A DNA stretch of 64,000 nucleotides from Strix aluco (lineage: Eukaryota; Chordata; Aves; Strigiformes; Strigidae), in the NCBI RefSeq assembly GCF_031877795.1, contig NC_133932.1, positions 138,000,841 to 138,064,840 of the forward strand. The letters run 5' to 3'. Positions 1 through 19,320 of this stretch are shown one piece after another. The first letter of the stretch is position 1. Each line of letters opens with the position of its first letter. Both the position numbers and the translations under genes were made by a program. The notes under the pieces were generated by a model, which was not told the origin of the DNA, did not search any database, and saw only the letters and a list, made by a program, of their open reading frames with translations.

Positions 1-1632
1 AGCTTACTCACACCCTCCTCAGACAGGCTCTTTCCTGGCCGGTCCAGACCCACCAGTTTGCACCTCTCAGACCCACCAGCTCCCTTTAGACCTTCAGGAG
101 AAAGAGCTGGGGGGGGCACAGCAAGGCGATCCCCTTGTACTGCAAGTCCTGGCTGCCGCTGCCTGCCAAGGTAAGGGATTCCCCTGCCCAAAACAGCCCT
201 TCCCGTGGAACCTCGCTGTCCCCAGCGGCAGCAGGCAACAGCCCCCCCGAGCTGCTCCAAACCCAAAGGCCAGAAGCTCAGACAGGGGGGTTGTGCCTCC
301 CAGCTGAGCAGCACCAAGGCTGGGGCCTTCCCTGCCCCACGCAATCGCCCTCGTCTGCAGCTCCAGAGAACGGGATGAGCCCCGGGCTCCTGCCGAGCGT
401 GTGCGAGGACCCCCGGTGCTGCAGAACACAGGTCAGGCACCGCCCAGCCCCGCGCTCCCGCCGGCCGCTGCTCCCCCCTCCGAGGGCCCAAACCCCCGAG
501 GGCCGGCCCAGCCGTCACCGGGGCAGAGGGGCGCAGCGTGGGGAGCGTCCACCGTTCTGGCTAACGGCGTCAGGGCCGCGACGAGGCTCCCACCATCCTC
601 TCAAACCCGTCGTGCATCATTTTAAGGCGTTTCGGCCGCCTCTCCCCTGCAAGGGCTTCACCCCACAGCCCGGCTCCAGGGACAAGCCCCGTTCCCGTGA
701 GCCCGCGCTCACCTGTTCTCCCACCGCCGGTCCCCGCGGTTAACGCCTCTCGCTCCTCCGCCCCCCCGTGTTTACATTCCTGCCGCGTTCATAACCGGTG
801 ACCCTGCCCCTCTCAGCCTCCTCTTTTCCAGGCCAAAAAAAGTGGAGCTCCTCCAGCCCTGCCCTGCCCAGGCAGCCTCCCCTGCCCCGCTTCCTCCTGC
901 GACACCGATGCCGGGTCCCAGCCGCGATCTCGCCGGTTCTTCGCAGCGTTAACGGCAAAAAAGCGCCGTTAATGTCGCGGTCTCTGCTAAAGGCAGGTGC
1001 AGCCCGAGATCTCGCGACCCTTCCCAGGGCCGGGCCCGTCGCCCGCCGGCCCCGCCGCTCCCGAGCGCTCCACCGAGGGCAGCGGCGGGATCTCCAGCCC
1101 AGCGCGGCCGCACCGGGCGGGCTCCTGCCCCTTCCCCCGGGAACTCGCGGGGTTTCTCCGCTCTTCGCACGCAACGTCGCCGGCCGCCAGCCCCGGGGCT
1201 CTGCCCCCAACCCCAGCGACGAGGGACCCGCCGGGCCGGGCCGCCCGCAGACGGGCGGGGCTCCCCGGGAGAGCCGCCCTGCACCGGGGGCCGCCGCCCG
1301 CTCCCCCCCCGTGCCTGCGGACGGACCGGCGGCTCCCTCCCCCCGCTCCCCTGCGGCAGCCCCAGGCGCTGCGCCCGGAGGCGGCCGCTCGTCCCGGGGG
1401 GGGCGGCCGCAAACGGCCCCGCCTGCCCGTCCGCGGAAGCCGGGGGGAAGCAGCGCTGCCGCCCGCGCCGGTACCGGCCGCACCCGCCCCGGGGCCGGCG
1501 GGTCAGCGGAGGCGGCCGGTTGCCCCGGGACGGGCGGCCCCGCCTGAGCCCCGGCACCCCCAGCCCCGCTCCCGCGGGCCCCGCCGCCCCCGCCCAGGCC
1601 CGGCCGCGGCACGGGGCCGCCCCCGCCCGCAC
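1..1632. other. GC-rich flank, no gene confidently placed
   Basis: This stretch is GC-rich and CpG-rich and gives long open frames on both strands, none with recognisable protein character. Two splice-like spots were seen. On the plus strand around 135-175 a short open segment ends in AAG|GTAAGG. On the minus strand around 420 a CTGCAG acceptor-like site precedes about 140 open bases. Either could belong to the gene whose first exon lies at 1633-1764, or to a gene further left, but frames and phases do not settle it. I see no repeat of known family here. Confidence 0.4.
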
Positions 1633-1764
1633 CTCTCTCTTCCGCACGATACCGCGGGCGCGGCGGCGGCCGATGCCGCTGAGCGCCCCCTCCAGCTCGG
1701 CCACGCCGGCGCGGTTGATGTCCAGCTTCCCCCCGCCGGGGCCCGGCCCGCCCGGCCCCGACAT
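1633..1764 (-). CDS. First coding exon of an unidentified helix-hairpin-helix protein (partial)
   Basis: A minus-strand ATG at 1764-1762 opens 44 codons that end exactly at a good donor, GAG|GTGCGG (phase 0). After a Gly/Pro-rich lead (residues 1-12) comes KLDINRAGVAELEGALSGIG, then a basic stretch ending in RKRE. The pattern LDIN-A---EL--L-GIGR--A--I---R is that of a ComEA/EEPD1-type helix-hairpin-helix, which binds DNA non-specifically through its backbone. The exon lies in a CpG island about 140 bp downstream of the RRP8 poly(A) signal, and a start there fits a separate promoter. I do not recognise the gene: the human neighbours of RRP8 that I recall (DNHD1, TIMM10B, ARFIP2) carry no such motif. 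Later exons would lie towards position 1 or beyond it. It could also be a chance open frame in GC-rich DNA, but the motif match and clean donor argue against that. Confidence 0.42.
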
Positions 1765-1830
1765 CCCGGCACGAACCGCCGCCGCCGCCGCGCAGGCCCC
1801 GCGCGCACTGCGCAGGCGCGGCCCCGCCCC
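1765..1830 (-). promoter_or_regulatory. Probable CpG-island promoter with an NRF1-like site
   Basis: Immediately upstream of the helix-hairpin-helix exon is a run of CpG. TGCGCAGGCGCG at 1809-1820 resembles the NRF1 palindrome (YGCGCAYGCGCR) with one mismatch. NRF1-type sites are common in TATA-less promoters of housekeeping genes. There is no TATA box. The assignment is inferred from position and motif only. Confidence 0.35.
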
Positions 1831-1906
1831 GCCCCCGGCGCCCCTGGCCCCGCCCTCGTCGCCCTAGGCCCCGCCCCCAGAGCCCTGACCGTGCGGATCC
1901 AGCGGC

Positions 1907-1912
1907 TTTATT
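1907..1912 (-). terminator. RRP8: RRP8 polyadenylation signal (AATAAA)
   Basis: The plus strand reads TTTATT, giving AATAAA on the minus strand 52 bases past the RRP8 stop codon. It is the only such signal between RRP8 and the next minus-strand start at 1764, so the RRP8 3' UTR should be very short. Confidence 0.75.
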
Positions 1913-1964
1913 GGCAGCTGCGCGGCGCGGGGCGGGGCCTCCCGGCGTGGCCCCGCCCCCGCCC

Positions 1965-4483
1965 TCAACGGCGCTTGTAGCGGCAGGGCCGCAGGCGCAG
2001 CCCGGGCACGGGGCGGCGGCGGGGAGGGCCGGTCTTGGCGAACTCCAGCAGGTGGAAGAAGGCGCTGGACAGGTCCTGGGGCAGAGCCGCCTCAGCGCCG
2101 CGGGGACCCAGCGCCCCAACACCCCCCCCCCCACCTCCCTGCGGGACCCAGCACCCCAACACACCCCCCCCCAATCCCCGCGGGACCCAGCACCCCAACA
2201 CCCCCCCCACACCTCTGCATGCACCAGCACCTAACCGCCTCCCAGACCCCATCGCCCTTCCCATCACAGCCCCACCGTGCCCTGCGTCCCCCCTCCCAGA
2301 CCCCAACACCTCAACCCCCCCCCGGTCCCCCAGACCCCCTCCCAGACCCCAGCACCACAGCCCCCACATGTCCTGAGCCCCTCAAACCCCTCCCAGCACC
2401 ATGCCCCAGGTCCCTCTGACCCCCAAGCCCCCCCATCCTAGACCCTCACACCCCCCCACGCTGTCACCCCCCCCAGACCCGCAGCGCCCTGCCCTGCCGC
2501 CGCAGCAGGACAGGTGGTCTCTGGCTGCCAGGGACCAGGGGCTCCTTCCCGGCGCTTCCCGGTGCCCCCCCGCGCTCAGCGCAGGACGCCCCCAAGGGAG
2601 GACACACCTTGGAGACGCTTTTGAAGCCCAGCTGAGCCATGGCGTTCACGAAGGTGCGGGTGTCCTCGAAGCGGCTGGCCACTTCGGCCACCATCAGGGT
2701 CCCCCTGCAGGACACCCCAGCCCTGAGCAGTGGCAGCTCCCAGGGCAGAGCCCCGCGACTCCCGGCTCCCCCCGGCACCTCCCGCTCCCCCCCCAGCCGC
2801 CTACCCCGGCTTCAGCACGCGGTTGGCCTCTTCCAGGATCTCCTGCAGGTTGGTGCCCATCAGTGCCAGGCAGAACACGGCCACGTCCACTGACTCGGCC
2901 GCCAACGGCACCTGCCAGGGACCCCCCCCGAGGATGACGAGGGGGCTGGGGCAGCCCTTCTGCTCCCCCCGCTCTGCCATTCCACCCAGGACCTCCCCGG
3001 AGCCCGCCGACGGGGGCGCCCCAGTTTTCCGCACAGATGTGCGCTCCCTCTCACGCACGGGACCCTTGGCACCCCGCCCGCCCTCCCCTGTCCCCCACAA
3101 CCGCCCCCCCCCCCCCGGGTGCCCTCCCTCACCCTGGCCCCCCGACCTCGGCCATGTCGCAGACGGTGACCAGCGGGCTGAGGGGCACCAGGTCGAAGGA
3201 GTGAACCTTGTTCCTGACACTGCTCGCGATCTTGCAGTCGCCGCACCCAAAATCCGCCACCACCAGCGAGGCCGGCCTGGGGGGGGAGCGGGGGCTCAGA
3301 ATGCCCCTTTGCCCTGCATCCCGCCACCCCCGGGCCCCCCAGGCCCCCGCCGCGGCTCACCGCCGCCGCAGCCAGCGCACGATGAGGTTCACGGGGTGCT
3401 CGGGCCAGCGCCCCACTTGCTGGGCGAAGCCGCGGTGGTAGATCTCGAAGGCCTCGGGGTCGCTCTGGAAGAGCCGCGCGGCCTCGCGGCTGGTGCAGGT
3501 GTAGAGCTGCTCGTTGAGGTACCGGAACCGGGCGCCCAGCAGCCGCTGCTCCATCCGCGCCCGCAGGGCCGCCGACCGGCCCGACGGAGCCGCTTCCCGG
3601 CCGGGCAGCGCCGGGGCGACCGGCCCTGCCCGGAGTTCCTCCGCCTGCCGCCGCTCGTCCTCCTGCCCGCTCCTCCGCTGCCTCCGCCGCCGGCGCCGTG
3701 CCGGCTCCCCGGCCGCCGCCCCCGGCTCCCCCGGCACGTCTGGGGGCACCGGAGGGAAGTCAGGGGGGTGGCGGGCGGATCCCGACCCTGCCCCCGGTTC
3801 CCTGCCGGGATCCCCGGGACTGAGCGGGTCGGGCGGCGGTACCTCTGTCCGGGCGCTGCCCGCTCGTCTGCGGAGCTGCCCGCTCCGCCGCTCCCCGCCC
3901 CGCCGCTCCTGGTGCCTACCGACCCACTCCTGGTACCTACAGAGCCGCTCCCGGTACCTACAGAGCCGCTCCCGGTACCTACAGACCCGCTCCCGGTACC
4001 TGCCGGCCCGCTCCCGGTACCTGCCGGCCCCCTCCCGGCACCTATCGACCCGCTCCCGGTACCTGCCGATCCGCCCCCGGTACCTGCCGGCCCGCCCCCA
4101 GTACCTACCGACCCGCTCCCGGCACCTACCGACCCGCTCCCGGTACCTACCGACCCGCTCCCGGTACCTACCGGCCTGTCCCCGGTACCTACCGGCCTGC
4201 CTCCGCTGCCCGGGCCGCTTCCGCGCGGGCCCGCCGTCCCGGCCCGGCTCGGCCGCGCAGTCCCCCGGGAGCCGCCGCTTCCCCGCCGCCGCGGGGCCCT
4301 GCGGAGGGCGGGGGCCGGTCACCTTCCCCCGCGCCCAGGGACCGGCCCGGCCCGCCGCCGCCCCGTGCGCGCAGCCCTTACCGGCCGGCCCGGGCCCTCG
4401 GGGGCGCCGCGGGGCCCCGGCCGAGCCCGGGCCCGGGCGGGACCCCCCGCCCCGTCGTTCCACTCCTCCTCCTCCGCGAACAT
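1965..4483 (-). CDS. RRP8: RRP8, ribosomal RNA-processing protein 8 (nucleomethylin), complete
   Basis: Nucleolar protein with a SAM-dependent methyltransferase fold. The family installs an m1A in large-subunit rRNA and takes part in eNoSC-mediated rDNA silencing. Exons in transcript order are 4382-4483, 4193-4298, 3361-3739, 3147-3276, 2805-2911, 2608-2704 and 1965-2075, with all phases closing, for 343 residues. The start reads MFAEEEEW, like human MFEEPEW. The conserved domain begins near [20 protein letters not shown], followed by the SAM-binding loop VADFGCGDC, then [21 protein letters not shown] and [11 protein letters not shown], and the protein ends in PCRYKRR. Human RRP8 is 456 residues; the bird protein lacks most of the charged N-terminal repeats while the catalytic half is intact. 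The first two exons are the least certain, because that part is poorly conserved and was placed by phase and splice sites. It is head-to-head with ILK, as in human. Confidence 0.92.
2098..2210. repeat. Short tandem repeat in the last RRP8 intron
   Basis: About three imperfect copies of a unit of roughly 45-50 bp, each containing GGGACCCAGCACCCCAACAC followed by a long C run. It lies wholly within the intron between RRP8 exons 2608-2704 and 1965-2075. The open frames it makes are by-products of low complexity. Confidence 0.75.
3904..4197. repeat. 21-bp minisatellite, 14 units, in an RRP8 intron
   Basis: Fourteen tandem 21-bp units (plus strand like GCTCCCGGTACCTACCGACCC) fill most of the intron 3740-4192. 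The first unit overlaps the end of the exon 4193-4298. Read on the minus strand in the RRP8 frame, each unit gives a heptad such as VGRYRER or AGRYRER with no stop codon. Each unit also carries AGGTACC or GTAGGTACC, which resembles a splice donor. I treat the array as intronic because an exact donor (CCG|GTAGGT) and acceptor restore the conserved RRP8 reading on both sides. Confidence 0.85.
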
Positions 4484-4906
4484 GGGCCTGGCGGCCGCTG
4501 GGCCCAACAGCACCGACCCCGGTGGCCCCGGCGCGGCCGGTGCGGGCGGAGCCCACGTGTGCCCGCGCGGGAGACTAGAGCGGCCCCGGCAGCGCCGCGG
4601 AGCAGCGCCCCCTGCGGGCGGGGGGACCGGCCGCTGCCTGCGCGGGGCGGTGCCGCGGGCGCCCCCCCCCCGCCCGGTGCGCCCCGCCTGTGCCCGGCCT
4701 CGCCGCCGCCCGGTGCCCGCCGCCCGCCGCCCGCCGCCCCGTGCCCGCCGCCCCGTGCCCGCTGCCCGCGCCCCCCCGCGCCCCCCCGCGCCGTGCCCGC
4801 GCCCCCGGAGCGGGCGGCAGGGGGCGCTGCCGGCGGCCGGCCCGGGGCGGAGCCCCCCGCGCTGCCCCGCGCCCGCCGAGCCGCCGCCCTGCGCCCGCCG
4901 GAGCCG
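4484..4906. promoter_or_regulatory. Divergent CpG-island promoter of RRP8 and ILK
   Basis: Between the RRP8 start (4483, minus) and a candidate donor GAGCCG|GTGAGA at 4906 (plus) lies extremely CpG-rich DNA without a TATA box. An E-box, CACGTG, sits near 4555. ILK in vertebrates has a non-coding first exon; the segment ending at 4906 is a plausible one, but nothing in the sequence fixes the transcription start. The head-to-head arrangement with RRP8 is the same as in human. Confidence 0.5.
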
Positions 4907-6691
4907 GTGAGAGCGGCCGGGCCCGGCCAGCTGCGGCGGGAGCCGGGCTGGGCCCGGGAGCGAGCGAGGCCGCGGCTGCGGGTCGGCCGGGACGGGGCCG
5001 GGCGGGGACCGGGTCTGGCTGAGCCGGGACTGGGGCTGCACCGGGCCGGGCAGGGGCTGGTCGGGGTCGGGGTCGGGGTCGGGGTGGGTTTGGGCCGCGG
5101 CTGGGCCGGGACAGGGCGGGAGCAGGGGCACGTTTGGGACCGGCTGGGCTGGGACCGGCCTTGGGCCGCGGCTGGGGCCGACCCGGGGCAGGAAACGGCG
5201 CCCCCGGGGGTGGGAGCGGGGCTGGGGCCGGTGGCGGCCGCGGTCGGGATGCGCGGGGGGGGGGGGGGCGGGCAGGGGCCGCCCGGGAACAGGACGGGGT
5301 CAGCGGGGTCAGGGCAGGCAGCGGCCTGCTGGGGCAGGAGGGGGCTGGGGGGCTGCAGGGAGGAGCCTTGGGGAAGGGTCTCGGGTCAGGGCCGGTGAGG
5401 AGCCGGGTGACCTGGGTGTCCCCATCGTGGGGCCACAGCCTGAGTGCTGGGGAGAGGGGCCGCGGGGGGCTCAGCAGGGCCAGCGTGGCCACTTGGCAAC
5501 GGGGAGCAGGGGCCCTCGTTTGGGGCAGGGCCGGGGCTGGGGGGGTCTGGCAGCGCGGCCGGGCCCGAGGCAGGGGCTGGGGTGTGACAGGCGGGTGCGG
5601 CAGCCCCGGGCCCGGGCTGGGGCGGGGGAGGCGGCAGTGACAGCGGGATGCCGGTCCCGCGGGGCCGGGCCGGGGATGGGGTGTCGCTGGGGTGCCCCTT
5701 CCCTGGTCCCGGCCCAGGTGGGCGGGTGAAGGATCCAGTCTGGGGGTGACGCCGCCAGCCCTGGGGCTCTGGGGCGTGGGGTCGGGGCTCGCCGTTGGCT
5801 CCCCGCGGGCAGGGCGGCTCCATCCCCCGCAGCCGGGAGCGGGGCCGGAGCTGATCCTGGAGCCTGTGAGGCCCCCGGGAGGGTCTCAGCGTCCCCTGCC
5901 CCCGTAGCTGTGTGTGGCACAGGCCGAGCAGCCGTCGCGGGGGGCAGCTGCCCGGGCCGGGGCCCGTCCTGCCCGCGGGAGCGGGTGGGGGTCCTGCTGC
6001 GGCTGGTTTAAGCCCTCACAGGTGCACGTCAGGGTCATCGTGCTCGGCTTGTCCCTGCTCCCGCGCTGTGGGACCCGCTGAGGGCAGCCCCATGTCCCTG
6101 CTCGATGCTGCAGAGCCCCAGGCTGGTGGGGGGCTCAGGGCGGTGCAGCCCGGGGTCAGGCTGCCGGTGTCCGGGGTTAGAAATGGAACCAGGACGCCCG
6201 GGCTTTGCCTGGCCCTGGGCTGGGGCGTCGAGGCGGAGCCTGGGGACCTTTGGGTTTCTGGGGCACGACGCTGGGCCGAGTTCAGCCGAGCCTGGGTCGG
6301 AGCTGGGGATCGGGAGGGGCTGCGGGACCCCGTGCAGGGTGGTGCTGGCCCTCCTCCAGCTCAGCTCCCCCGGCAGATGCGGGCGCCGGCTCTGGCTGGG
6401 CCTGCAGATAAGCCTGCGGGTGCCAGATCTGCTTCCTGCGGGCTGGGGCCGGTCGTGAACTTCCCCTTCAGCCGCGAGTCCGGCTCGGCCTAGCCTTTGC
6501 GGCCCCACTGGCGGGAGGGATACGAGGCTCCTGCCCTTGGCCCCCCAGGGAGACGCCCCACTGAGGGGCTGCCGGGAGCAGGGGGGCTGTGGGGGGCGAT
6601 GTCCAGCTCCCAGGGCTGCATGTGGGACAGGGGGGGTGGGCAGCCCCGCTCCGCCACGGGGCCCCGTGTCCTCACACCCCCCTCCCCGCAG
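4907..6691 (+). other. Probable first intron of ILK, no coding features
   Basis: The DNA is GC-rich throughout, with G-rich runs on the plus strand. Open frames exist on both strands, but none shows conserved protein sequence or splice partners. The acceptor CCCCGCAG at 6684-6691 leads into the first coding exon of ILK. I see no known repeat family apart from the small G-rich array at 5059. Confidence 0.5.
5059..5093 (+). repeat. G-rich hexamer array, candidate G-quadruplex
   Basis: About five copies of a GGTCGG/GGGGTC unit end in GGGTTTGGG. Several runs of three or more G with 1-3 base loops fit the G-quadruplex pattern. It lies just downstream of the proposed ILK first exon, a common place for such motifs. 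Confidence 0.6.
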
Positions 6692-6702
6692 CCAGCGTCG
6701 CG

Positions 6703-9700
6703 ATGGACGACATCTTCACGCAGTGCCGGGAGGGCAACGCGGTGGCCGTGCGCCTCTGGCTGGACAACACCGAGAACGACCTCAACCAGGGGTGAGCAGG
6801 GGGGGCCCGGCAGGGGGCTGTCCCCGGCTCAGCTGGACCGGGGCCGCGGGAGCTGGACCGGGGCCGGGGCTGTTTCCGCTGCGCTCGGTGTCCCGGGGGG
6901 GGGGGGTGGGATTCGGCTCCTCCCCGCCGGGAGGAAGTTACCGCATCGCTGAGGCATGAGGCTGCACGTCCTCGTCCTCCAGCCGCTTCCTCGGCCGCCG
7001 CCGCTCCTGCCGCGGGACGTGTCCCGGGCTGGGCTGGGGGTGCTGGGGAGCATCTCCCCGTCCCCGGGGCGGCGGGGGTGCCTGGGTGACCCCTTCCCCC
7101 GACTCCTCTGCTGGGGACGCCGCCGCTGACGTGTGGAAGCGGGGCCGGGGTCTAACGGGCAGGCCGGGCATCCTGAGCTCTCCTGCCCGCAGCATGTACC
7201 CCACTCCGGCAGCTCCCGGCGTTTGGGCCGGGCTTAGAGCAGACATCTCCATGGCCTGTGCCAGGCGCAGCCTCCTGCCCGCACCCCAAGACCCCTCGCT
7301 GGGCCGTGGCAGCGTGTCCCCCCGTACTCGCTGGGGGCCGGGGGCCTTCCCAGGGCACGTCCGTCAGTCCCTCCCGGTCACCCAGAGCTCTCCCAGCCCC
7401 ACAGATCGTGCCGCGGGTCACAGCTGGCCCTCGCTGGGGTGTTTTGGCCCCGCCTGCCTGCAGCAGGGATGGGGGGCAGCTGGGGGTCTGCCCTGGGGGG
7501 GAGCTGGGGGTGCAGCAGCCCCCCCTGCCGGGCCCTAATCTCCTTTTAAGGCCTGGCTGGTCTCCTCCTCCCTTACTTGGCCAGGCACCGCCGAGCAAGG
7601 GGGGCCGGGGGGGGATCCGGCGCATGCCAGCATCCCGGTGATTCAGCCCTGCAGAAGATGGGGTTTGGCCAGGGCCTCCGGGGCCCTCGCGGGGCTGGGG
7701 GGCAGCGGCAGAGATGCTGCACGGGGCGATGTTGCCCGTTGGCAGCCCCCGGCCGCGCTCGGCCCCTCTCTCGCTGCCCGGGCTGGGGCAGGACGCAGCG
7801 GGGGGGGGCTGCGGCCGCTGAGCGGAGCCGACCCCGCTGCCTCCGCAGGGACGACCACGGCTTCAGCCCCTTGCACTGGGCCTGCCGCGAGGGCCGCTCC
7901 AACGTGGTTGACATGCTCATCATGCGGGGAGCGCGCATCAACGTCATGAACCGCGGCGACGACACCCCGCTGCACCTGGCTGCCAGCCACGGCCACCGCG
8001 ACATCGTGCAGAAGGTACCGGCCCCATGCCGCTGCCCTCCACGGAGCGGGACCCCGCAGCCCCCTCCACCGAGGACTCGCTCCCCACTCTCACCTTCCTT
8101 GCCCTGAGCCCGCTGAGCCCCCCGCCCCCCCCACAGGAGCCCCACATCCCGCCTCGGCCCCCTCCCAGCCGCAGGCCAGCGCCCGGGCAACAAACGCGCT
8201 GCTGGGGCGTGGCGCTGGGCCGGAGGGGACCTGCCCCGCGCTGACGGGGCTCGTCCTCCCGCCCCCCAGCTGATCCAGTTCAAAGCAGACATCAACGCTG
8301 TGAACGAGCACGGGAACACGCCGCTGCACTACGCCTGCTTCTGGGGACACGACCAGGTGGCGGAGGTGAGCGGAAGCGCTCGGGCACGGGCGGGAGTCGG
8401 GAGCGAGGGAGGAGGCAGGAGGCCGGGGGTGTGCGAAGGGGCTGCAGCAAAGTGCAGGTGCTGCCCTTCTCCTCCCTCAGGACCTGGTGGGCAGCGGGGC
8501 CTTGGTCAGCATCGCTAACAAGTACGGCGAGACGCCCATTGACAAGGCCAAGACGCCGCTGCGGGAGGTCTTGAAAGGTAATAAAGAGGTTCTCGTCCTG
8601 GCCCTGACCCCCGCGCAGCACCAGCGACCTCTGCTCATGCTGCCCGACGCCCCGTCCCTCCCCAGAGCGCGCCGAGAAGCTGGGCCAGAGCCTCACCAAG
8701 ATCCCCTACAAGGACACCTTCTGGAAGGGCACGACCCGCACGCGGCCCAGTAAGGACGGAGCCTTCCCCGACGGGGCGGGGGAGCGCGGGGGGGGGGCAG
8801 CACTCTGCGTGGCAAATGGCGCGTTCCGGGGGCGCAAATCCCCTCGCTGCAGGTGGCGCCTCATGGGAGCAAGGCCTCCTGCTGGTGTGGCCTCCCTGCG
8901 CGGCCCCAGGTGGGCGTAGGGAGGAGGGTCCATCTCCTTCTCTTACAGGGAACGGGACTCTTAACAAACTCGCTGGGATAGACTTCAAACAGCTGAGCTT
9001 GAGCCAAAAACTCAATGAGAACCAGTCAGGAGAGGTAGGTCGGGCTGTTGGCCCCCCGGGACAGGCTAGTGGCACCAGGCAGGTCACCGCTCTGTCCCCA
9101 GCCCCCGGCTGGCCGCGAGCGCAGAACTGGGGCGCAGCCGCTTGGGGGGTTTCTGTGGCCCCCCAGGGAAAAGGCACCCGCCGGGGCTGAAAGGCCGGAG
9201 TTCGCCCTGGCACGGTGCCACCGTCGCTCCACGTCGCTGGGGGACTGTGGGGGCTCGGGGACCCTCTCCCAGGGACTGTTCCCCCCCTCCCTGCAGCTGT
9301 GGAAAGGGCGCTGGCAAGGCAACGACATTGTCATCAAAATGCTGAAAATCCGGGACTGGACAACTCGGAAGAGCCGAGACTTCAACGAGGAATACCCGAA
9401 GCTGCGGTGAGTGCCGGCGCCCTTCGCAGGGCTCTCGAGGGCGGGGGGGTAGGAGCGCTCCGGGGAGGACGGCAGCGGGGTGGGGGGGGGGCGCAGCACC
9501 TGCCGTTCTCAGGGCTGTCACCTCTATCGCAGGATCTTTTCTCACCCCAACGTGCTGCCGGTGCTGGGCGCCTGCCAGTCCCCCCCAGCACCCCACCCCA
9601 TCGTCATCAGCCACTGGATGCCCTACGGGTCCCTCTACAACGTGTTGCATGAGGGGACAAGTGAGTGCTGGGGGGCTGACAGAGCCGGGGGCTCCTCTCC

Positions 9701-10625
9701 CCACCCTCGAGAAGCTGCTTCCCCGGGTGTTGGGGGAGTGGCAGCTGCAACAGCAGCAGCGAGGGCCCAGGGCCAGCTCAGTCTCCGGTCCACGTGCCTC
9801 CCCCGCGCCCCGCATGTGCTCTCTGCCACCCTCGTGCCCCCTCCCTCCCCGCAGACTTCGTGGTGGACCAGATGCAGGCGGTGAAATTCGCCTTCGACAT
9901 CGCGCGGGGCATGGCCTTCCTGCACACGCTGGAGCCGCTCATCCCCCGGCACCACCTCAACAGCCGCAGCATCATGGTGAGCGGCGCTGAGGCGCGGCCC
10001 GGCCCTTCCTCCCGCGCACGGGGGCAGGCCCGGCCCCCCCTGACCTCCCCCCCGTCCCCAGATCGACGAGGACATGACGGCGCGGGTCAGCATGGCCGAC
10101 GTGAAGTTCTCCTTCCAGTGCCCGGGGCGGATGTACGCGCCAGCCTGGGTGGCACCCGAAGGTGAGCGCCCGGTAGCTGGGCCCCTCCCGCCACTCGGCC
10201 CCTCCCTGGCCCCCGGCCCCCTTCAGCCCCGTCCCGGTTCCCCGCAGCTCTGCAGAAGAAGCCTGAGGAGATCAACCGGCGCTCGGCTGACATGTGGAGC
10301 TTCGCGGTGCTGCTGTGGGAGCTGGTGACACGTGAGGTGCCCTTTGCAGACTTGTCCAACATGGAGATAGGGATGAAGGTGAGGAGGGGGCTGGCTCCGG
10401 ACCAGGGGGCTCGGGGAGGCTCCGAGAGCCCCCCCCTGCACCTCCTGGGTCCCTGATCCTGCCCCGCTCTCCCAGGTGGCCCTGGAGGGGCTACGTCCAA
10501 CCATCCCCCCCGGCATCTCCCCCCACATCTGCAAGCTGATGAAGATCTGCATGAACGAGGACCCAGCCAAGCGCCCTAAGTTTGACATGATCGTGCCCAT
10601 CCTGGAGAAGATGCAGGAGAAGTAG
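6703..10625 (+). CDS. ILK: ILK, integrin-linked kinase (pseudokinase), complete
   Basis: Scaffold of the ILK-PINCH-parvin complex at focal adhesions; it links beta-integrin tails to actin. Coding exons are 6703-6791, 7849-8014, 8270-8365, 8481-8577, 8666-8749, 8949-9034, 9297-9406, 9533-9660, 9855-9976, 10062-10161, 10248-10378 and 10476-10625, total 1,359 nt, giving 452 residues, exactly the human length. It starts [12 protein letters not shown]. Ankyrin repeats follow ([44 protein letters not shown]), then the linker [17 protein letters not shown] and the kinase-like domain. The ATP-site lysine is kept (IVIKMLK), but the catalytic loop reads HHLNSRSIM with no HRD, and DVK stands where DFG would be, as in all ILKs, so it should be a pseudokinase. 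The activation-segment region [10 protein letters not shown] and the parvin-binding C-lobe are intact. It shares a promoter region with RRP8 and converges on TAF10. Confidence 0.97.
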
Positions 10626-11127
10626 AGCGGGAGGTGCCTCCCCCCCACCCGACGCTGCCATGCTCCCCTCCCCGCCACCCCCCAAGTGCCTTCTTTCACC
10701 CCAGCGCCGAGGGGGAGCAGGGAACCCCCCTCACCTGAGCCGGCCACGGACACACGGTACAGACGACGCTGCCTTCGCTGGAGCCGCTCTGGGGGCTTCA
10801 GACAGCGGCGCCACGTCTACGGCAGCACCTCGGCCCTCCCTGGCAGCTGCGGGCAGAGACGGAGCAGGAGCCCCGGCCCCGGCGCGGCGCTGGGTGCTGC
10901 TCCCCGCCAGGCGCAGACGGGGCTGCGGAGCCGCCGCGTCCTTGTCCCCAGGCCCGGAGCAGCTCCCCCGCTGAGGGGCTCTCGCGAGGCCCGTCCAGCC
11001 CTGGTGCTTTTCCCGGCCGAGGACAGGGGCGGGGAAGCTTTGCCTGTCGTGCCCAGCACCACCCCAGCTTCGCGCTTCACTCTTATCGTTTCCATCCAGG
11101 CCACATGGAAAAGCTGCCAGCATCCAA

Positions 11128-11133
11128 AATAAA
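11128..11133 (+). terminator. ILK: ILK polyadenylation signal (AATAAA)
   Basis: AATAAA lies about 500 bases after the ILK stop and is followed by ACATTTGTTACG. It ends the ILK 3' UTR. About 385 bases further on is the TAF10 signal on the opposite strand; the gap between holds nothing recognisable. Confidence 0.85.
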
Positions 11134-11517
11134 CATTTGTTACGAAAACTGGCTGCTGGGGAGGGGTGCATGCGCACGGGGGGTGTTTCAGGTGCAAGGG
11201 GGTGAGGCTGACGCGGGGGCTGCCCGAGAGTCCGCGGGGTCCCAGGCTCTGCCTGTCCCAAACCTCCCCGGGTGACAGGAGCGGGGCAGGCGCAGGCCCC
11301 AAGCGCTCCTGTGAGACGGGGGTGCGAAACACGAGGGCTGGGCAGCCCCACTGCACCCCCTTCCCTTCAGGGTCGCGGGGCAGGGCTCAGCCCTCCCGGA
11401 ACGGCAGAAGGCGCAGCCAGAACCCCTGGTTGGGAGCCCGACGTGAGAAGAGGCCCTGCCCGGGCAGCCTGTAGGCAGGAGACAAGGTGCCTTTCCACAA
11501 AAAAACCTACCCAGCTG

Positions 11518-11523
11518 TTTAAT
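11518..11523 (-). terminator. TAF10: TAF10 polyadenylation signal (ATTAAA)
   Basis: The plus strand reads TTTAAT, giving the common variant signal ATTAAA on the minus strand 50 bases beyond the TAF10 stop. No AATAAA is closer, so the TAF10 3' UTR is probably only about 70 bases. Confidence 0.7.
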
Positions 11524-11572
11524 GGCACTGAAGCGACTCTAAAAAAAGTTCCCAGTGACGACCCCTCAGTCT

Positions 11573-13296
11573 TTAGGTGAAGTAATGTGGCTTCTTCACG
11601 TTGATGCCGTACTCTGCAAGTGCTGGCGTCAGGTCTTCCATGGTCAGCGTGTACTTCTTATCCTGAAGGGACAAGGAGTTGCGTCAGTCACAGCAAGGGC
11701 CACCCGAACTCCTCAAAAATGCAGGTTTGGGGCGTTTCCCCCGCAGGCTGTGGTGACCTGTACACACACAGCTCCCAGCAGCAGCCGCAGAGCTGTTGGG
11801 GGCATTAACCAGCTCCCGGATACCCCACGTTCGTGCACTCGGCGGACGGAACCGAGCGTTACTCAACGCTCTAAAGATAAGTGACGTCACCCCCACGAGG
11901 TCCCCGAACCACGAACACGTTGACCGGGAGAACTCCCCGGCGCTGCCGCTACGCGCTCGCTCCCCGCTGACGTCCCTCCCCCCGCAGCAGCGTTCTGGGG
12001 GCTGTCGGAGGGAGGACGCCGGGCTGGAGGGCCCCCGGTCCGACGGGCTGCAGCTGCTCACAGCGTTCCCAGGAATCCCACTGCCCGCCTCGCCCTCTCG
12101 CCAGCGCCCCTCTCCCACCCGCAGAGATTATTCGCAAGTGCTTTAAGCCTCCCCCCGGAGTCCCCGCGCTCCGTGGCGGGAGCGGAGCTGGCTGCAGCCC
12201 CAGCAGCCGGGCTCTCCCCCTCTCACCTTGCTCTTGTTGCGGGAGCTGCCCGAGGCCGTCCCCTTCATCTTGCAGTGCTGCAGCGCGTCGTTGGCGATGT
12301 CAGAAATAAACTTCTGTGCGGCCAGAGAGATCAGTCGGATGCTGCCCGGCGGGGAAAGGAGGAGGGAGGGCGTCAGACGGGCAGCACCGGGCACCGCTGG
12401 GGCCCCCAACTACCAGACCCCGTCCGGGGCCCCCCAAGGCCCCACTCTGCTGCCACTTACATGCGCGGATCAGAGGCCTCGAACCCCGCTCTGTTCAGGT
12501 AGTAACCCGTGACGGCATCCGGGATCTGCAGAGGAGAGGGGCTGGAAGGGCTGCAGGGGGGCTGGGGGGGAGCTGGAGGGGCTGGGGAGGGGCGGGAGGG
12601 GGGAGGGAGGGAGGGTTTGGGCCCCCCGCGGCAGCCACTCGCCCCCCGCGTACCGTGGGCGTGTAGTCCTCCAGCTGCATCAGGAAGTCCACCAGCGGCG
12701 TGGTGGACACCACCGGCTTCACGTCGCCGTTGGCCGCGCTGGGCGGCACGTAGACCCCGTTGGACATGGCGCCCTCCGGGGGGGCCGCAGCCGCTGCCGC
12801 CGAGACCGGCACTGCGGGCACAGGGCGCTCAGCCGGCACCGGTGCCCCGGGACCACCGGACGATCCCCGAGACCCCTGCGGTCACCCCACGGTGCCACCT
12901 GGGACCACCGCACTTCCCCCCCGCCCCCCGGTTCCCCGCCGGCGTTCACGGGCCCCCCATGCTCACCCCTCGGGGTCACCCCCCCCCCCCCCCCGGTGTC
13001 CGGCGGGCGGACAGGCCGAGCTCGGGAAACGGTTCCGGGCCGCCCCCCCCCGCCCCGTGCGCGGGTCCTGTCCCCCGCCGTCCCCGAGTCCCCCCCCCCC
13101 ACTCACCGGGCCCCCTCGCGCCGGCCGCGCCGCCCTCGGCCCCCCGCGCCGCGCCGCCCACCGCGCCCGGGGCCGCCCCGGGGCCGCCGCTACCGACGGC
13201 AGCCGGGCTGGGCTTGTTGTCAGCGGCGGGGGGCGCGGGGGGCGCGGGGGCGGCCGGGGCCGCGGCGCCGGGATCGGCCTCGGCGCTTCCGCTCAT
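11573..13296 (-). CDS. TAF10: TAF10, TFIID/SAGA subunit, complete
   Basis: A histone-fold subunit shared by TFIID and SAGA; it pairs with TAF3, TAF8 or SUPT7L in the nucleus. Exons in transcript order are 13107-13296, 12654-12811, 12461-12525, 12227-12341 and 11573-11662, with phases closing, for 205 residues (human 218). The N-terminus is a low-complexity Ala/Pro/Gly stretch ([20 protein letters not shown]). From [19 protein letters not shown] the match to human is nearly complete: [54 protein letters not shown], then a basic linker ending NKSK, and the tail [12 protein letters not shown]. The length difference is all in the low-complexity N-terminus. The start codon sits in a CpG island, and the TPP1 poly(A) signal is only 118 bases upstream of it. 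Confidence 0.96.
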
Positions 13297-13413
13297 CGCC
13301 CGCCGCCGCCTCCCGCCTCCCGCCTCCCCGCGCCTGCGCGCGCCGGCCCCGCCCCACAGCGCCCCGCGGCGGCGCGGCGGGCACAGAGAGGCGGAGGGGC
13401 GTGGCCCCGCGGG

Positions 13414-13419
13414 TTTATT
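13414..13419 (-). terminator. TPP1: TPP1 polyadenylation signal (AATAAA)
   Basis: The plus strand reads TTTATT, so the minus strand has AATAAA 36 bases past the TPP1 stop. The cleavage site should fall near 13395, less than 100 bases from the TAF10 start codon, so TPP1 termination and TAF10 initiation occupy almost the same DNA. Confidence 0.8.
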
Positions 13420-13454
13420 AGCATATCCCCGCCCCCCCCCGCCCCGCCCCGGTG

Positions 13455-16400
13455 TCACGGCGGTAGCAGCGCCCGCAGCAGCCGCGGGAAGTTGGGGGTC
13501 CCCCAGCCCGTGACGGGGTCCCAGGAGGGGCCGGCGCAGAAGCCCTGTCCCTGCACGGTGCCGTCCAGGCAGGAGAGGTGACAGCCCTGGGTGACCTGCA
13601 GGGACGGGCCTCAGCGCGGCCGGCGGGGAGCAGCCACACCCCGCCCCGAACCCCACCGCGGGAACCCCAGGGAACGCGGCCCATGGGAGCCCCCGCCTCA
13701 CCCCCCGGGGAAGGGCCGCCCCCTCCCCCGGCAGCAACCTTAGGACACAGGGGCCCCCCTGAACACCCCCAGCAGCCCAAGGGCACCCTGCCCCACCCAG
13801 CCCATGGGAACGACATGGGGACCCCCCCCCCAGTGGGACGCTGTTGGCCCAAGGGGAGCAGCCCACCCAGGTCTCCCCCTCAGTACCCCCGCTGCTACTC
13901 TGGCCCCCCCAGCACCCCCCCAGCACCCCCCCAGCCCCCTGGCAGCCCCCCAGCAACCCTCCAGCCTCCTGGCCACCCCCAGCAACCCCAGCCCCATGGC
14001 ACCCACCTGGACCCCCAGCATCCCCCCAGCCTCCTAGCAGACCCCAGCACCCACCCAGTCCCCTAGCAGCCCCCCAGCACCCTCCAGCCCCCCCCCCCCC
14101 CCCCAGCTCACATCGTAGAGCGCAGCGTCGTGCCCCCGCTCCTGCAGCTGGTAGAGCGCGGGGTTGAGGAAGCCGAGGGGTGCCAGCCCCCGCTGCAGCC
14201 GCCGGTCGTTGATGAGGGCCACCATGCCCCCCACCACGGGCGTGGACGCCTGCCCGGAGACACTGAGGCCTCAGCGCCCGCCCGCGCGGCCACCACGGCC
14301 CCGCACAGGGCCGACCTCCTTCCTTACCGACGTCCCCGACACCCAGGGCAGCGGGATGCGGTTTGTCACCACCCAGTAGTTGTCGGAGAGGGCGGCCAGG
14401 TCGGGGTAGGCACGGCCGCTGCTGTTGTAGTAGGAACTGGGAGGCAGCTTCGTGGCCGAGCGCAAGAACCGTCCGATGGCGGCAGCCTGGGGGGAGCAGA
14501 GGGAGCAGGGTGCCTGGCAGCAGGACCCAGCCCCCGCTCGCCGCTGGACCCCCTTCCCCCGGCCCACAGACCAGCCCCAGGGACGCTTGTGCCGGCCACG
14601 GCCCATCACCGCTCCTGCCCAGCCCCGCGCAGGCCCCAGCCCCGGCCTCACCTGGTAATCCGGCCTGGGGAAGACGTTGCTGAAGCCCCCGCCGCTGATG
14701 TAGTCCGTCACCTCCGCGGTCACCAGGAAGGGGTTCTTGAAGGACGTTCCCCCCACGGTGGTGACGTAGGGACTGGGGGGACAGGTGGGCGCTGCAGGTG
14801 GGCACACAGCGCCCGGGGCCCCAGCGGCACCCCACGCGCTGGCCCCCGCCCCAGGAGCCGCGCGCGGGTGGGCTGACACCCCTCACAGCCAGCGCCAGGC
14901 AGCAGCCGGCCCCGGGCCGGGGCTCGGTGCCAGCAGCGGGTTTTGGCTGGCCCCGGCTGCGGGCAGCTCTGCGTCTCCACGGGACCCAGGGTCACCCCCC
15001 TCACCCACCTCGAGGCTGGAAAGCTGGGCCGGAAGGTGTGTTTCCCACCGGGCACCCGTCTGCACCCAGCGCCGTCGTCACCTGATGAGAGAGACGGACA
15101 GACGGACGGACGGGGTGATCCGGCAGCGCCCGAGCGGCCCCTCGCCCACCCAGGAGCCACCTGGGGCTCCCGGGCAAGGGGTGCGGGCTGCCCCCCGGCT
15201 TGGTGCTCAGCTCCCCACTGCACCCCCAGAACAGCGCACACCTGAGGCAAACAGGATGGTCAAGCCCCGGGCAGCCGCCTTCATGAACTCGACGTTCACG
15301 CGCTCCATGTAGGCGAGCGACAGGCTGTCCTCGTCATCGCCGTAGCTCACCGAGTGCACCCATGGCAGCGACGACATGTTGGAGAGCAGCAGCAGCCAGG
15401 CCAGGAAGGGCTCCTGGCTCTCGTGCCGCCCTGCGGGGACAGAGCGGGGCTGGCTCAGCTCCCCCGAGGACACGGGGCTCGAGGGAAGGCGGGGATGGCA
15501 CAGGGGGGCCCCCGTCTCAGCAGCACCACCAGCACCAGCCCCGGACGGTCCCGCAGCTCCTGACCTGCCCGGGCTCGGGGCTCTCCCGTGAGCTCCCACT
15601 GGCAGCACGGCCAAGGGCAGGGACCGTCACGCTGGATGGCCCCAGCTCTGCCAGCCGGTCTGGCAAAAGGTCACCCTGAGCCCGAGCAGGGGGTCTGCGC
15701 CCACCCACTGCTCCTCTGAGCACCAGCCGCGGGGCTGCAGCCACCCTCGGCAGCCAGGCAGCCACGCCGTGGCTCGGCCAAGCCCATGTCCCACCTCCAT
15801 CTGCCAGGGTCCCCTCCTGCCCCTCTCCCGAGGAGAGCAGAGCCCCAGCCACCCCTCCGAGCTCTCAGCTGCTCACGCAACCGCCTGTCTTGGCACATCA
15901 CTAACTGCATGGGGGAGGTGAAATTTAACGTGGAGCTGCGCCCGCCTTTGCCATGGGGAAGGCAGAGCCGGCAGCCCCGAGGGCGCCCCATCTCCTGTTC
16001 AGCCAGTTTCTGATCTGGGACAGACACTTTGTCCCACAGCACCGTAGCCGTGCCTGTGCAGGCTGTTTTGCAAGCTTGTTTTCTCAGATTGCCTTACTCT
16101 CCTTCATCCACTCTACTGGTGGATTCATGGGCGAGAGATCAGCCCCAAAGCAGCAGGAATTAAACAATAAGACGCACTCGCTGTGGTCTCCCTGCAGGGA
16201 AGGGCAGCAGAGCGGCGTGACTGCGTGGCCGAGGCGTGGAAGCCCCTGTTACAGGACACTGTGGGTGCTGGAAGTTCACTCAGGTTCAAAAGCAACTACA
16301 CAGACCAAGGGAAGAGCATTTCCCTACGAGCTCTCAGAAACCAGCGTCAGCAGTGGCGCTGGGAGGCCACAAGGCACGTGCCCACGGCGGCGGGGAAGCG

Positions 16401-19220
16401 CTGGGGGACGCACGGCAGGGGACACACGGCGGGGGACGCACGGCGGGGGATCAGTACCTGCATTGCTGAAGACCCAGGTGGAGATGTTGGCGCCCGTGCT
16501 CATGATGTATTCCACGTCCAGGCTGGCCTCCAGGCCCGCCTTGCCCTTGCCCTGGTGCCCAACCACTTGGTCAACCTGAGAGCGGTGGCCAAAGCTTCTG
16601 CCAAAGAGCTGCATGAACTCAGCCAGGTCAGCCTGGTGGAAATACTGTTCCAAGAACTGGGGGGACAAGAGGAGCGGGTGGGTTTTTTGTTTTCTGTTGA
16701 AACAACGAGGTAAGTTTTTTCTCCTGACTTAGTAGAGCGGCCCAGCACGGGTCTGTGCAACGCTCGCCCACCGCGTGCTCCCACCAGCCGCTGAGGGATC
16801 CCCACAGCTGTCCTGGGGCCACCAGAGCAGCACCAGCGCGTGGAGTTCCCACAGCCCACGGGCCTCCGACCGGGAGCGGCTCCGCCGGTTACCTGGGCGC
16901 AGGCCTGGCTGTTGTTGGGCAGCAGCCCGACGTCCCCTCCGGTCATGTTGTATCTCTTACGGATGACGGAAGGCGTCACGCCCAGGTGGAAAGCTGCTCC
17001 CCCTCCAATGTGCTGCCCCCACTCCATCTCCTTCTTGGCCCAGGCTCTGCTGACCACCTTTCTCTCCGCAGGGAACCGGTGCAGGCCACCCACTGGTGCG
17101 CAAACAGGCAGGAGAAGCGGCTGTCAGGGCGCAGAGCTCCGGGAGCAGTGTCAGGGCCCCTTGGCTCTCCCGTCCCCATCCTCACTCGGGCTTTGTGTTG
17201 GAGCCGGCCGGCCGCGGGGGAGCCTGTTCCCTGCCCCAAGCACCGCGCAGAAGGTGGGAAAGCGCCAGCGACAGGTATTCCCCTGGCACAGCTCAGGCTC
17301 CCCCCTGCCTGGCCGCGGCCGCAGCCTGGCACCCCTCTGCTCCCCTCGCGGAACGGCCGTGGCAGCCCACACAAAGGGGTCTCACAGGAGGGAGTTTTTC
17401 CAGCTCAGAAGCAGCTGCACATCCACAGAGACAGGCCGCACCTGAACTCTCTGCACCCACCATCCCGGCCCGGGAGCACCAGTAAGAAACACTTCGGGTG
17501 CTGCCTGTCCACAGCACGGAGTGGTTCAGGTGGGAAGGGACCTTTCAAGGCATCTGGTCCAACCCCCCTGCCACAAGCAGCGACATCTTCAACTCAGTCA
17601 GGTTGCTCAGAGCCCCGTCCAACCCGACCCTGAATGTGTCCAGGGATGGGGCATCTGCCTCCCATGCACAAACCTCCTCAGGGGGCCCAAGGGCAGCCGG
17701 GAGCACGGCCGGGGGAGCTGCCACACCGTCCCGCGGGACACCACGATGGCCAGGCCTGGCCGCTCCGTGCGTAACCTCCCACCCGCCCCCCAGGCAGCCT
17801 CGGCTCCCCTGCGCAGGACGTACCAAAGTCAAGGTGCTCAGCCAGCTCCTCAGGGACAGCGTAGGGGAGTGGGGAGCGCACGACGCTGCGCTGGCCCTTC
17901 ACATAGCGGTGGAACTCGGCCCCGGGCAGGAGCCGCTCGGCCGTGCTGCAACACAGGGACAGCCACCGCACGGGGATGCGCGTCGCCGGGACGGCCATGC
18001 CCGTTCGCTGCCCTTCCCACCCCGCCCGCCGCTGGGACCAGTCGGGGACGAGCTTCACCTCCCACCTGCACAGCTGAGCTCGCACACCAATGAGCACCTT
18101 CCAAACCCAATTCCCGTCACCTAACCGAACCAGAGCCCTGACGCTGCAGTGTCCCCTGCAACTCTACCCCCAGCCCTGCCCTTGGGGACTCCACGGCCAC
18201 ACAGAAGGCGGGAGGAAGCGTGGGGCTGGCCCGAGGACCTGACGGCCACGCACGCCTGGGTTCTGGTACCGCAGACACTGGCTGTGAGTCCCCCCCAGCA
18301 CTGGGCCCATGCACGCAGGCAGCCAGCTCTGGGCTGCGGAGCCCTGGAGCCCAGGCAGGGACACAGCTCAGCCCTCCGTCACCCGGCTGCACCGTGGAGC
18401 CGCAGGGAAGTCGCAGAGGCAGGGGCAGGGTCTGGCTTCGTCTGTTCTCATGGGAAGGGCACGGCCAGCCCGGGCTCACCTCGCCGGCATGTGGCACTCC
18501 AGGAAATCGAGGGTGGCGACGCTGCTGCACCTCTCCACTCCGTGGCCTTGCAGCCACTTCAGCACCGCCATGAGGGTGGCTGGGGACGGCTGGACGAGGT
18601 CCCGCACCTGCTCCAGGGACAGGAACTTGCCTGCGAGAGGCACAGGGAGGTCAGAGCCCCGGCCTGCGGGGCCCCAGGGGGCCTGGCGGGGCTCGGGCGC
18701 GCGGCCGTTACCGTATCGCGGTGAGCAGGGGTCTGAGACGGCACCGACGAGCTGGGCCAGGCGCGTCGTGCCCCGCTGCCGCAGGGCCAAGGTCAGCTGC
18801 ACCTCGTGGCCGGGGTCCAGGCGGCCGGCGTGGGCCCAGCCGGGGGGCACCCTGCGGGCAGGCTGTGAGCGCCCGGCGGGCACCAGCGGCCCGTCCTGCC
18901 CCCCCGAGCCCCGCACCTACCGGAACGGCGGGTCCGGCTCCGGGGCCAGGCCCGCGGCGCAGCTCCAGGCGGCCGCACACAGCGCCAGCACGGCGGGGGC
19001 CCCCCGGCACCTGCGGCGAGCGGTCGGGGGGGGCGAGCGGTCAGGGGGGGGCGGGCGGGCACCGGCGCGGCCCCGGGGAGCCCCGGGACTGCAGGTGCCC
19101 GGCCGACCCCCCCCCCCCGCCCCGGGCCGGGGAGCCCCGCCAGACCCCCCCCCGAGCCCCGGCCAGCGCCCCGTTCCCCCTCGGTGCCCGTTCCCCCCGG
19201 CCCCGTTACCCCCGCGCCAT
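13455..19220 (-). CDS. TPP1: TPP1, lysosomal tripeptidyl-peptidase 1, complete
   Basis: Sedolisin-family (S53) serine protease that removes tripeptides from N-termini in the lysosome; its loss causes CLN2 disease in humans. Thirteen exons in transcript order: 19210-19220, 18921-19010, 18712-18851, 18480-18630, 17824-17945, 16893-17092, 16458-16656, 15242-15430, 15009-15081, 14652-14772, 14328-14486, 14112-14249 and 13455-13595, encoding 577 residues (human 563, also 13 exons). A signal peptide is clear ([20 protein letters not shown]). The pro-domain follows, then the mature start [14 protein letters not shown]. Catalytic Glu and Asp lie in [10 protein letters not shown], the oxyanion Asp in ASGDDGAGC, and the nucleophile Ser in WVSGTSASTP. 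The C-terminus is [17 protein letters not shown]. Glycosylation sites include NMT, NIS and NSS. The extra residues lie mainly in the linker after [10 protein letters not shown], where the propeptide is cut. All key residues are present, so it should be active. Confidence 0.97.
13880..14105. repeat. CCCCAGC-rich degenerate tandem repeat in the last TPP1 intron
   Basis: The plus strand repeats variants of CCCCCAGCACC and CCAGCCTCCTGG, ending in a run of about 18 C. It lies between TPP1 exons 14112-14249 and 13455-13595, and its right end is only a few bases from the donor of the former. It makes long meaningless open frames in several phases. Confidence 0.7.
16395..16452. repeat. Short GGGGACGCACGGC tandem repeat beside a TPP1 donor
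   Basis: About four copies of a 15-base unit like GGGGGACGCACGGCG. The array stops only a few bases from the donor of the TPP1 exon 16458-16656, inside the following intron. Confidence 0.7.
17516..17664 (-). mobile_element. CR1 LINE 3'-end fragment in a TPP1 intron
   Basis: The plus strand reads GGTTCAGGTGGGAAGGGACC then TCTGGTCCAACCCCCCTGCC and ATGTGTCCAGGGATGGGGC, the reverse complement of an avian CR1 3' terminus. It is a short, 5'-truncated, diverged copy of about 150 bases. It sits between TPP1 exons 17824-17945 and 16893-17092. Confidence 0.85.
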
Positions 19221-19320
19221 CCCGCCGCCTCCCGCCGCAGCGCCCCGATCACGTGAGTGCGGGCGCGTGACTCGCGGTCACGTGAGGAGGCCGAAGCCGC
19301 GGTCACGTGGTGGGCGGGGC
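19221..19320 (-). promoter_or_regulatory. TPP1: TPP1 promoter with three CACGTG elements (CLEAR-type)
   Basis: Three CACGTG cores lie 30 to 90 bases upstream of the TPP1 start codon: 19250-19255, 19279-19284 and 19304-19309. The middle one reads GTCACGTGAG (19277-19286), matching nine of ten bases of the CLEAR palindrome GTCACGTGAC bound by TFEB/TFE3/MITF. The other two share TCACGTGAG and GTCACGTGG. TPP1 is an established member of the lysosomal CLEAR network in mammals, so control by TFEB is the likely reading. USF1/2 could also bind. There is no TATA box. Confidence 0.75.

What the first reader, a model, noticed from the sequence alone, without database searches (positions are those of the whole stretch)
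3740..4192. Stop-free RRP8 intron made of a 21-bp minisatellite that reads in frame with both flanking exons
The intron is 453 bases (3 x 151) and has no stop in the RRP8 frame. Fourteen 21-bp units encode arginine/tyrosine heptads (consensus near VGRYRER). Keeping the intron would insert 151 residues, mostly a basic heptad array, into the N-terminal part of a nucleolar protein whose human form carries charged repeats in this very region. Because each unit is a multiple of three, copy-number change would never break the frame.
Basis: partly seen in the sequence, partly recalled or inferred. Interest (0 to 1): 0.72.

Follow-up and report, generated by a model that had tools for sequence, protein, structure and literature searches.

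The report
Intron minisatellite repeating a splice site
A 21-base repeat inside a likely intron of the ribosomal-RNA-processing gene RRP8 happens to be readable as protein, but it looks like an ordinary GC-rich intron repeat that copies the intron's own splice start site rather than a hidden protein segment.

Summary
On the minus strand, 4192-3740 has matching splice sites, is 453 bases (phase 1 at both ends), has no stop in the RRP8 frame and is mostly a 14 x 21-bp array (4196-3903).

The reading as a hidden protein module is weak. Four of the six frames of the same stretch are stop-free. Variant types among units are 13 amino-acid-changing and 2 silent: no sign of selection on a protein. The non-array part of the intron lacks the near-saturated third-position GC of exons 1-3 (42/54 against 186/194).

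Each unit also carries a copy of the exon 2 splice donor, intact or decayed. Five donors, 21 bases apart (4192, 4171, 4150, 4129, 4108), keep GTAGGT, all in frame with the one good acceptor. I read it as a minisatellite grown at an exon-intron edge. Closest known kinds are avian "sequence stuttering" (PMC12954441) and the human IFI6/G1P3 minisatellite with multiple splice donors. The open frame is largely a by-product of a 21-base period in stop-poor DNA. Use of the donor ladder to add 7-residue steps is possible but unshown. No RNA and no second species could be examined.

The parts
4382..4483 (-). RRP8 exon 1 coding part, ATG at 4483, ends in phase 0
4299..4381 (-). RRP8 intron 1, 83 bases, GTAAGG...CCGCAG
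4193..4298 (-). RRP8 exon 2; its last 12 bases resemble the sequence before the repeated donors (10 of 12 match at units 2 and 6, 6-9 of 12 at the other units)
3740..4192 (-). RRP8 putative intron 2, 453 bases, phase 1/1, stop-free in the RRP8 frame
3903..4196 (-). Minisatellite, 14 units of 21 bases, consensus GTCGGTAGGTACCGGGAGCGG (VGRYRER), 0-4 mismatches per unit
4108..4192 (-). Ladder of five GTAGGT donors (units 1-5), first bases at 4192, 4171, 4150, 4129, 4108, all in frame with the acceptor before 3739
   Evidence: scores 3.86, 3.86, 2.23, 2.23, 2.23; predicted isoform lengths 343-371 aa
3740..3902 (-). Non-array rest of the intron, with branch-point-like CTGAC (A 21 bases from the end) and pyrimidine-rich acceptor
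3361..3739 (-). RRP8 exon 3: arginine-rich stretch and start of the methyltransferase domain (PF05148)
1965..3276 (-). RRP8 exons 4-7 and introns 4-6 (exons 3276-3147, 2911-2805, 2704-2608, 2075-1965)

Best explanation
It is a normally spliced intron (RRP8 intron 2) whose 5' part is a locally grown minisatellite. A 21-base segment spanning the exon 2/intron 2 boundary was multiplied in tandem to 14 units, so the splice-donor region was copied with it. In most transcripts the whole array is removed, by pairing the donor at 4192 (or a near neighbour) with the acceptor before 3739. The open reading frame comes from the repeat length (21 = 3 x 7), from its beginning inside an open exon, and from the scarcity of stops in DNA that is about 75% GC. 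Shown here: array, register, frame, splice signals, the variation among units. Inferred: that it is spliced, and how the array arose.
For: Donor score 3.86 and acceptor score 5.42 lie inside the range of 16 other introns of ILK and RRP8; 2.9% of 1,635 GT and 1.5% of 2,453 AG sites in window 1-20000, both strands, score as high. The acceptor is preceded by CTGAC, its A 21 bases from the intron end, with no AG between. Of 2,428 AG sites (this one included, the 16 known ones excluded) 30 score 5.4 or more and 4 of those have such a motif. The same GTAGGT donor is found at ILK intron 6. Phases match at 1/1. Unit variants are 13 nonsynonymous and 2 synonymous types. Non-array GC3 is 42/54 against 186/194 in exons 1-3. 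Exon 2's last 12 bases match 10 of 12 bases before the donor of unit 2. Of 11 array rows checked between 1965 and 10625, the 10 others overlap none of the 2,366 coding bases counted. Four of six frames are open. Repeat-filled introns with copied splice sites in GC-rich avian genes are described in PMC12954441 (section 7 read).
Against: No RNA evidence exists here. The splice scores use recalled human-like site frequencies. The branch-point-like motif is found in only 4 of the 16 other introns, so it is a weak sign. Array GC3 is high (87/98), as in coding DNA. A codon score did not separate exon 2 and the disordered part of exon 3 (-0.34, -0.32) from the array (-0.27) or the flank (-0.40). A non-repeat shuffle of the 453 bases is rarely open (0.0036 of 5,000). 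0 of 16 other introns are both stop-free and a multiple of three. With the intron removed, 131 residues precede the part that matches 2zfu, against about 240 in human by recall.
Confidence: 0.63

Rival explanations
1. There is no intron here. Exon 2 runs straight through the array into exon 3, and the arginine-rich heptads are always part of RRP8, as a coding minisatellite in a disordered N-terminal region.
For: Open frame through 4298-3361. Arginine-rich composition resembles exons 2 and 3. Array GC3 87/98. The codon score of the array is no worse than that of exon 2 and the disordered part of exon 3.
Against: Phase-matched donor and acceptor with a branch-point-like site. Flank GC3 unlike exons. 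Mostly amino-acid-changing variation, including G to C, E to G, R to W and R to Q. Seven exons, the number I recall for human RRP8, are obtained only if this intron exists.
Confidence: 0.17
2. One reading: the intron is usually removed but is retained in some tissues, giving a nucleolar protein with 151 extra residues, most of them a basic heptad array that may form a long helix.
For: Retention keeps the frame (494 aa). A single-sequence AlphaFold model makes residues 29-146 of the exon 2-array-exon 3 ORF one helix, with ten-residue block pLDDT of 89-96 for residues 41-130. A zebrafish rrp8 intron is retained in RES-complex mutants (PMC6047831, one legend passage); that passage does not say which intron.
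Against: No sign of selection on the protein. Openness in 4 of 6 frames. Single-sequence models of repeats are unreliable (general knowledge); mean pLDDT is 72.1 and pTM 0.32.
Confidence: 0.08
3. The donors are used as a ladder: the spliceosome picks among the repeated 5' splice sites and makes RRP8 forms with 0 to 4 basic heptads, so repeat copy number tunes the protein in 7-residue steps.
For: Five in-frame GTAGGT donors with scores 3.86, 3.86, 2.23, 2.23, 2.23; predicted 343, 350, 357, 364 and 371 aa. Human IFI6/G1P3 uses two downstream repeat units as donors to make three mRNAs (PMC4526556, one sentence seen).
Against: Units 6-13 have lost the GT or the G before it, and unit 14 has a weaker GTAGGC. 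No RNA. Competing donors often have one winner (general knowledge). Silent changes are not in excess among units.
Confidence: 0.12

Closest known systems
Avian 'sequence stuttering', including exon stuttering (Hron et al. 2026, PMC12954441; abstract and sections 7, 9 and 16 seen)
   Same: Local tandem expansion inside an intron of a GC-rich gene, imperfect units under 20% from consensus (the paper's figure for its PHF8 example), starting at the exon border and copying the splice donor.
   Different: About 12 exon bases are similar and 4 lie in the first unit, below the paper's cut-off of 20 exon bases. Dot-chromosome location and length variation among individuals are untested. RRP8 and ILK do not occur in the main text; the supplement with the gene list was not available.
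Human IFI6 (G1P3, 6-16) minisatellite with multiple splice donor sites (Turri et al. 1995, not held; seen only as a reference and in one describing sentence)
   Same: A minisatellite in which downstream repeat units serve as alternative splice donors.
   Different: Unrelated gene. Recalled unit length there is 12 bp, here 21 bp. Use of several donors is reported there and only predicted here.
Tandem-repeat introns of hidden GC-rich avian genes (leptin, TNF-alpha, PCP2 and others; PMC6792250, passages seen)
   Same: Introns built of GC-rich tandem repeats in GC-rich genes.
   Different: No mention, in the 12 passages seen, of an open frame or of repeated donors.

Membership tests
Avian sequence stuttering (intronic) | Imperfect tandem copies under 20% from their consensus inside an intron | tested here: met
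   0-4 mismatches per 21 bases, maximum 19.0%, mean 9.9% over 14 units; intron status itself rests on splice signals
Avian sequence stuttering (intronic) | Extensive length variation among individuals | not testable with these tools
   one sequence only; the own-genome search did not complete
Avian sequence stuttering (intronic) | Location on a dot chromosome of a bird | not testable with these tools
   species and chromosome not given; 2-kb bins are 64-83% GC in the first 20 kb and 48-70% later
Exon stuttering (screen definition in PMC12954441) | At least 20 exon bases copied into the adjacent intron | tested here: not met
   identical run next to the donor at most 7 bases, at best 10 of 12 similar; so not filed as exon stuttering by that screen
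IFI6-type multiple-donor minisatellite | Several repeat units carry an intact donor in frame with one acceptor | tested here: met
   5 of 14 units score above 1.5, all in frame
IFI6-type multiple-donor minisatellite | More than one donor is used in mRNA | not testable with these tools
   no RNA data available
Coding minisatellite / constitutive exon | Silent changes in excess among units | tested here: not met
   13 nonsynonymous and 2 synonymous variant types, about 30% synonymous expected; few variants, so low power
Coding minisatellite / constitutive exon | Exon-like codon-position composition | tested here: inconclusive
   flank GC3 42/54 against 186/194 in exons 1-3, but array GC3 87/98 is exon-like; codon score without power

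The most novel reading that the evidence does not exclude
An intron-edge minisatellite acts as an adjustable splice-donor ladder in a nucleolar rRNA methyltransferase: every added unit offers another in-frame donor, so individuals with different copy numbers make RRP8 with different numbers of basic seven-residue steps, up to the fully retained 151-residue form.
Probability: 0.12. Interest if true: 0.62.

Novelty: new member of a known kind. Interest (0 to 1): 0.3.

Why it matters
If it is only a spliced intron repeat, it is one more case of repeat growth at an exon edge in GC-rich vertebrate DNA, and a caution that stop-free introns mean little where GC is about 75%. If the donors are used, it would tie repeat instability to stepwise change of a nucleolar protein, which long-read cDNA from birds could test at once.

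Tried and rejected
RNA structure as the explanation: the intron folds no better than shuffles (z -0.93, 20 of 100 shuffles as good). A five-base-pair hairpin around the donor appears in all four ladder windows folded (units 1, 2, 3 and 5), but their z-scores are -1.14, -0.01, -0.51 and 0.15; two other donors of the window (ILK intron 6, RRP8 intron 3) gave 0.51 and -0.94. Rejected as a special feature.

Codon-usage scoring as a test of coding: without power here, since exon 2 and the disordered part of exon 3 score as low as the array and the flank, and the best of the six frames for the array was an antisense one at 0.40. Not used for the verdict.

Structure of the retained form: AlphaFold on one sequence gave a long helix. 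I do not lean on it. No fold search was run.

Human RRP8 exon structure or reported retention in papers: searches (15 of 63 papers listed; 10 of 1,624 listed) showed no paper on this intron among the rows listed. One zebrafish passage bears on rrp8 splicing. The statements about human RRP8 (seven exons, charged repeats, about 240 residues before the methyltransferase part) are recalled. One search (RRP8, ILK, birds, dot chromosomes; at least 3 of 4 terms) found 0 papers.

Rows dropped before a count: for the array/coding overlap I checked 11 of the 13 Tandem Repeats Finder rows between 1965 and 10625; the two left out (4703-4768 and 4703-4773) lie inside a row that was checked. The coding total of 2,366 there ends ILK at 10600, 25 bases short of its stop.

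Full report
What is there. The minus strand carries RRP8 from ATG 4483 to a stop ending at 1965. The methyltransferase part matches PDB 2zfu at E 1.3e-92, and the exon 2-array-exon 3 frame ends in Pfam PF05148. Exon 1 is 4483-4382, intron 1 is 83 bases, and exon 2 is 4298-4193. From 4192 to 3740 lies a 453-base stretch that begins GTAGGT, ends CCCCCAG, has phase 1 at both ends and no stop in the RRP8 frame. Fourteen 21-base units fill 4196-3903. Spliced RRP8 would be 343 residues, the retained form 494.

Is the open frame remarkable? Only mildly. The same 453 bases are stop-free in four of six frames: two on the minus and two on the plus strand. The array alone is stop-free in five of six. Eight of 11 other arrays of the window that I tested are open in all six frames, though all of them are shorter. 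Because the unit is 21 bases, an open frame of seven codons repeats itself: a shuffled unit is open in 0.59 of 20,000 trials and the 163-base rest in 0.70 of 5,000. Treating these as independent gives about 0.4, and a third of introns would be a multiple of three by chance (inference). On the other side, a shuffle of the 453 bases that ignores the repeat is open in only 0.0036 of 5,000. Of 16 other introns in ILK and RRP8, 5 are stop-free, 3 are a multiple of three and none is both.

Does it behave like protein-coding sequence? Mostly not. Compared with the consensus, the 14 units show 15 variant types: 13 change the amino acid and 2 are silent, while about 30% silent is expected without selection. 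That does not differ significantly from no selection (p 0.26) and shows no excess of silent change. Two of 15 types fall on third codon positions (p 0.08 for a deficit), the opposite of what purifying selection gives. The non-array rest of the intron has third-position GC of 42/54 against 186/194 in exons 1-3 (Fisher p 1.2e-4), or p 0.002 when exon 3 is limited to its disordered part. The array itself has a high value, 87/98, which speaks the other way, but with seven codons repeated this is not independent evidence. A codon score could not tell exon 2 and the disordered part of exon 3 from the array.

Does it look like an intron? Yes. With recalled human-like site frequencies the donor scores 3.86 and the acceptor 5.42, within the range of 16 other introns of the two genes (donors -0.21 to 7.14, acceptors -2.06 to 10.38); 2.9% of 1,635 GT and 1.5% of 2,453 AG sites in the GC-rich 20 kb score as high. 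The acceptor has a CTGAC branch-point-like site, its A 21 bases from the end, with no AG between. Of 2,428 AG sites, this one included and the 16 known ones excluded, 30 score 5.4 or more and 4 of these have such a motif; but only 4 of the 16 other introns have one, so its weight is small. The donor GTAGGT is also that of ILK intron 6. Of 11 array rows checked between 1965 and 10625, the 10 other than this one touch no coding base.

The unit runs across the exon 2-intron 2 border, so each copy carries the donor region. Units 1 to 5 keep CCG or TCG followed by GTAGGT, at 4192, 4171, 4150, 4129 and 4108, with scores 3.86, 3.86, 2.23, 2.23 and 2.23. All five are in frame with the same acceptor, and no other GT between 4298 and 3740 scores above 1.5. 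Units 6-13 have lost the GT or the G before it, and unit 14 has GTAGGC. Use of the five donors would give 343, 350, 357, 364 and 371 residues. Exon 2's last 12 bases match 10 of 12 bases before the donor of unit 2, with 7 identical next to it; the other units match 6 to 10 of 12. This is as expected if the exon edge was copied.

How it most likely works. A segment at the exon 2 border was duplicated in tandem, probably by slippage or unequal exchange in GC-rich DNA (inference). The intron is then spliced from the first donor, or sometimes a near copy, to the single good acceptor (inference). The array is removed and its open frame is mostly a by-product. I give this 0.63, a constitutive coding exon 0.17, regular use of the ladder 0.12 and regulated retention 0.08.

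What is known. PMC12954441 (abstract and sections 7, 9 and 16 seen) describes "sequence stuttering" of avian introns, in which a lateral part of an exon with its splice site is copied through the intron and may create alternative transcripts. The imperfection of the units fits (maximum 19.0% from consensus), but the paper's screen demands 20 exon bases, which is not met here. Neither dot-chromosome location nor variation among individuals could be tested. RRP8 and ILK do not occur in its main text; its supplement was not available. The human IFI6/G1P3 minisatellite is cited for multiple splice donors, with two downstream repeat units used to make three mRNAs (PMC4526556, one sentence); the original 1995 paper is not held. 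PMC6792250 (passages) shows tandem-repeat introns in other GC-rich avian genes. So this is a new member of a known kind. Its use as a ladder in RRP8 would be new as far as the rows listed by searches show; several of these listed only part of what they found.

Other checks. The intron RNA is not unusually structured (z -0.93). A single-sequence AlphaFold model makes residues 29-146 of the exon 2-array-exon 3 ORF one helix, with mean pLDDT 72.1 and pTM 0.32 overall; the array holds 36 arginines, 11 glutamates and 11 tyrosines in 98 residues. This says what the retained form might look like, not that it is made.

Noticed in passing
window 6703-10625 (+), 26075-28711 (-): RRP8 (-) is followed by ILK (+, 452 aa, 12 exons joined; gene name recalled) and, further on, a large cadherin ORF (Pfam Cadherin, E 4.8e-73) that I would call DCHS1 from recall; peptide pieces near 13.2 kb and 14.3-14.9 kb (-) look like TAF10 and TPP1 by recall only, and Pfam found no family in the 671-residue ORF 12976-14991 given to it. 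The order is the one I recall for human 11p15.4.
   Followed up: partly
window 1640-1765 (-): A short GC-rich reading frame starting MSGPGGPG...KLDINRAGVAELEGALSGIG looks like a helix-hairpin-helix start of another gene (by recall); the 41 residues given to Pfam matched no family.
   Followed up: partly
window 3146-2912 (-): RRP8 intron 4 seems to use a poor donor (GAG|GTCGGG) by the homology-guided join; its true donor may differ.
   Followed up: no
window 4087-4205 (-): The donor in units 1, 2, 3 and 5 sits in the loop of a possible small hairpin (CCGGU/ACCGG type stem around AGGU), which could mask the splice site; folding is not better than shuffles.
   Followed up: partly
window 3987-4091 (-), units 6, 7, 9 and 10: Four units have GC in place of the GT of the donor, which leaves a possible weak GC-type donor and makes CAG|GTAC four bases downstream, out of frame with the acceptor; these GT sites did not score above 1.5.
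   Followed up: no
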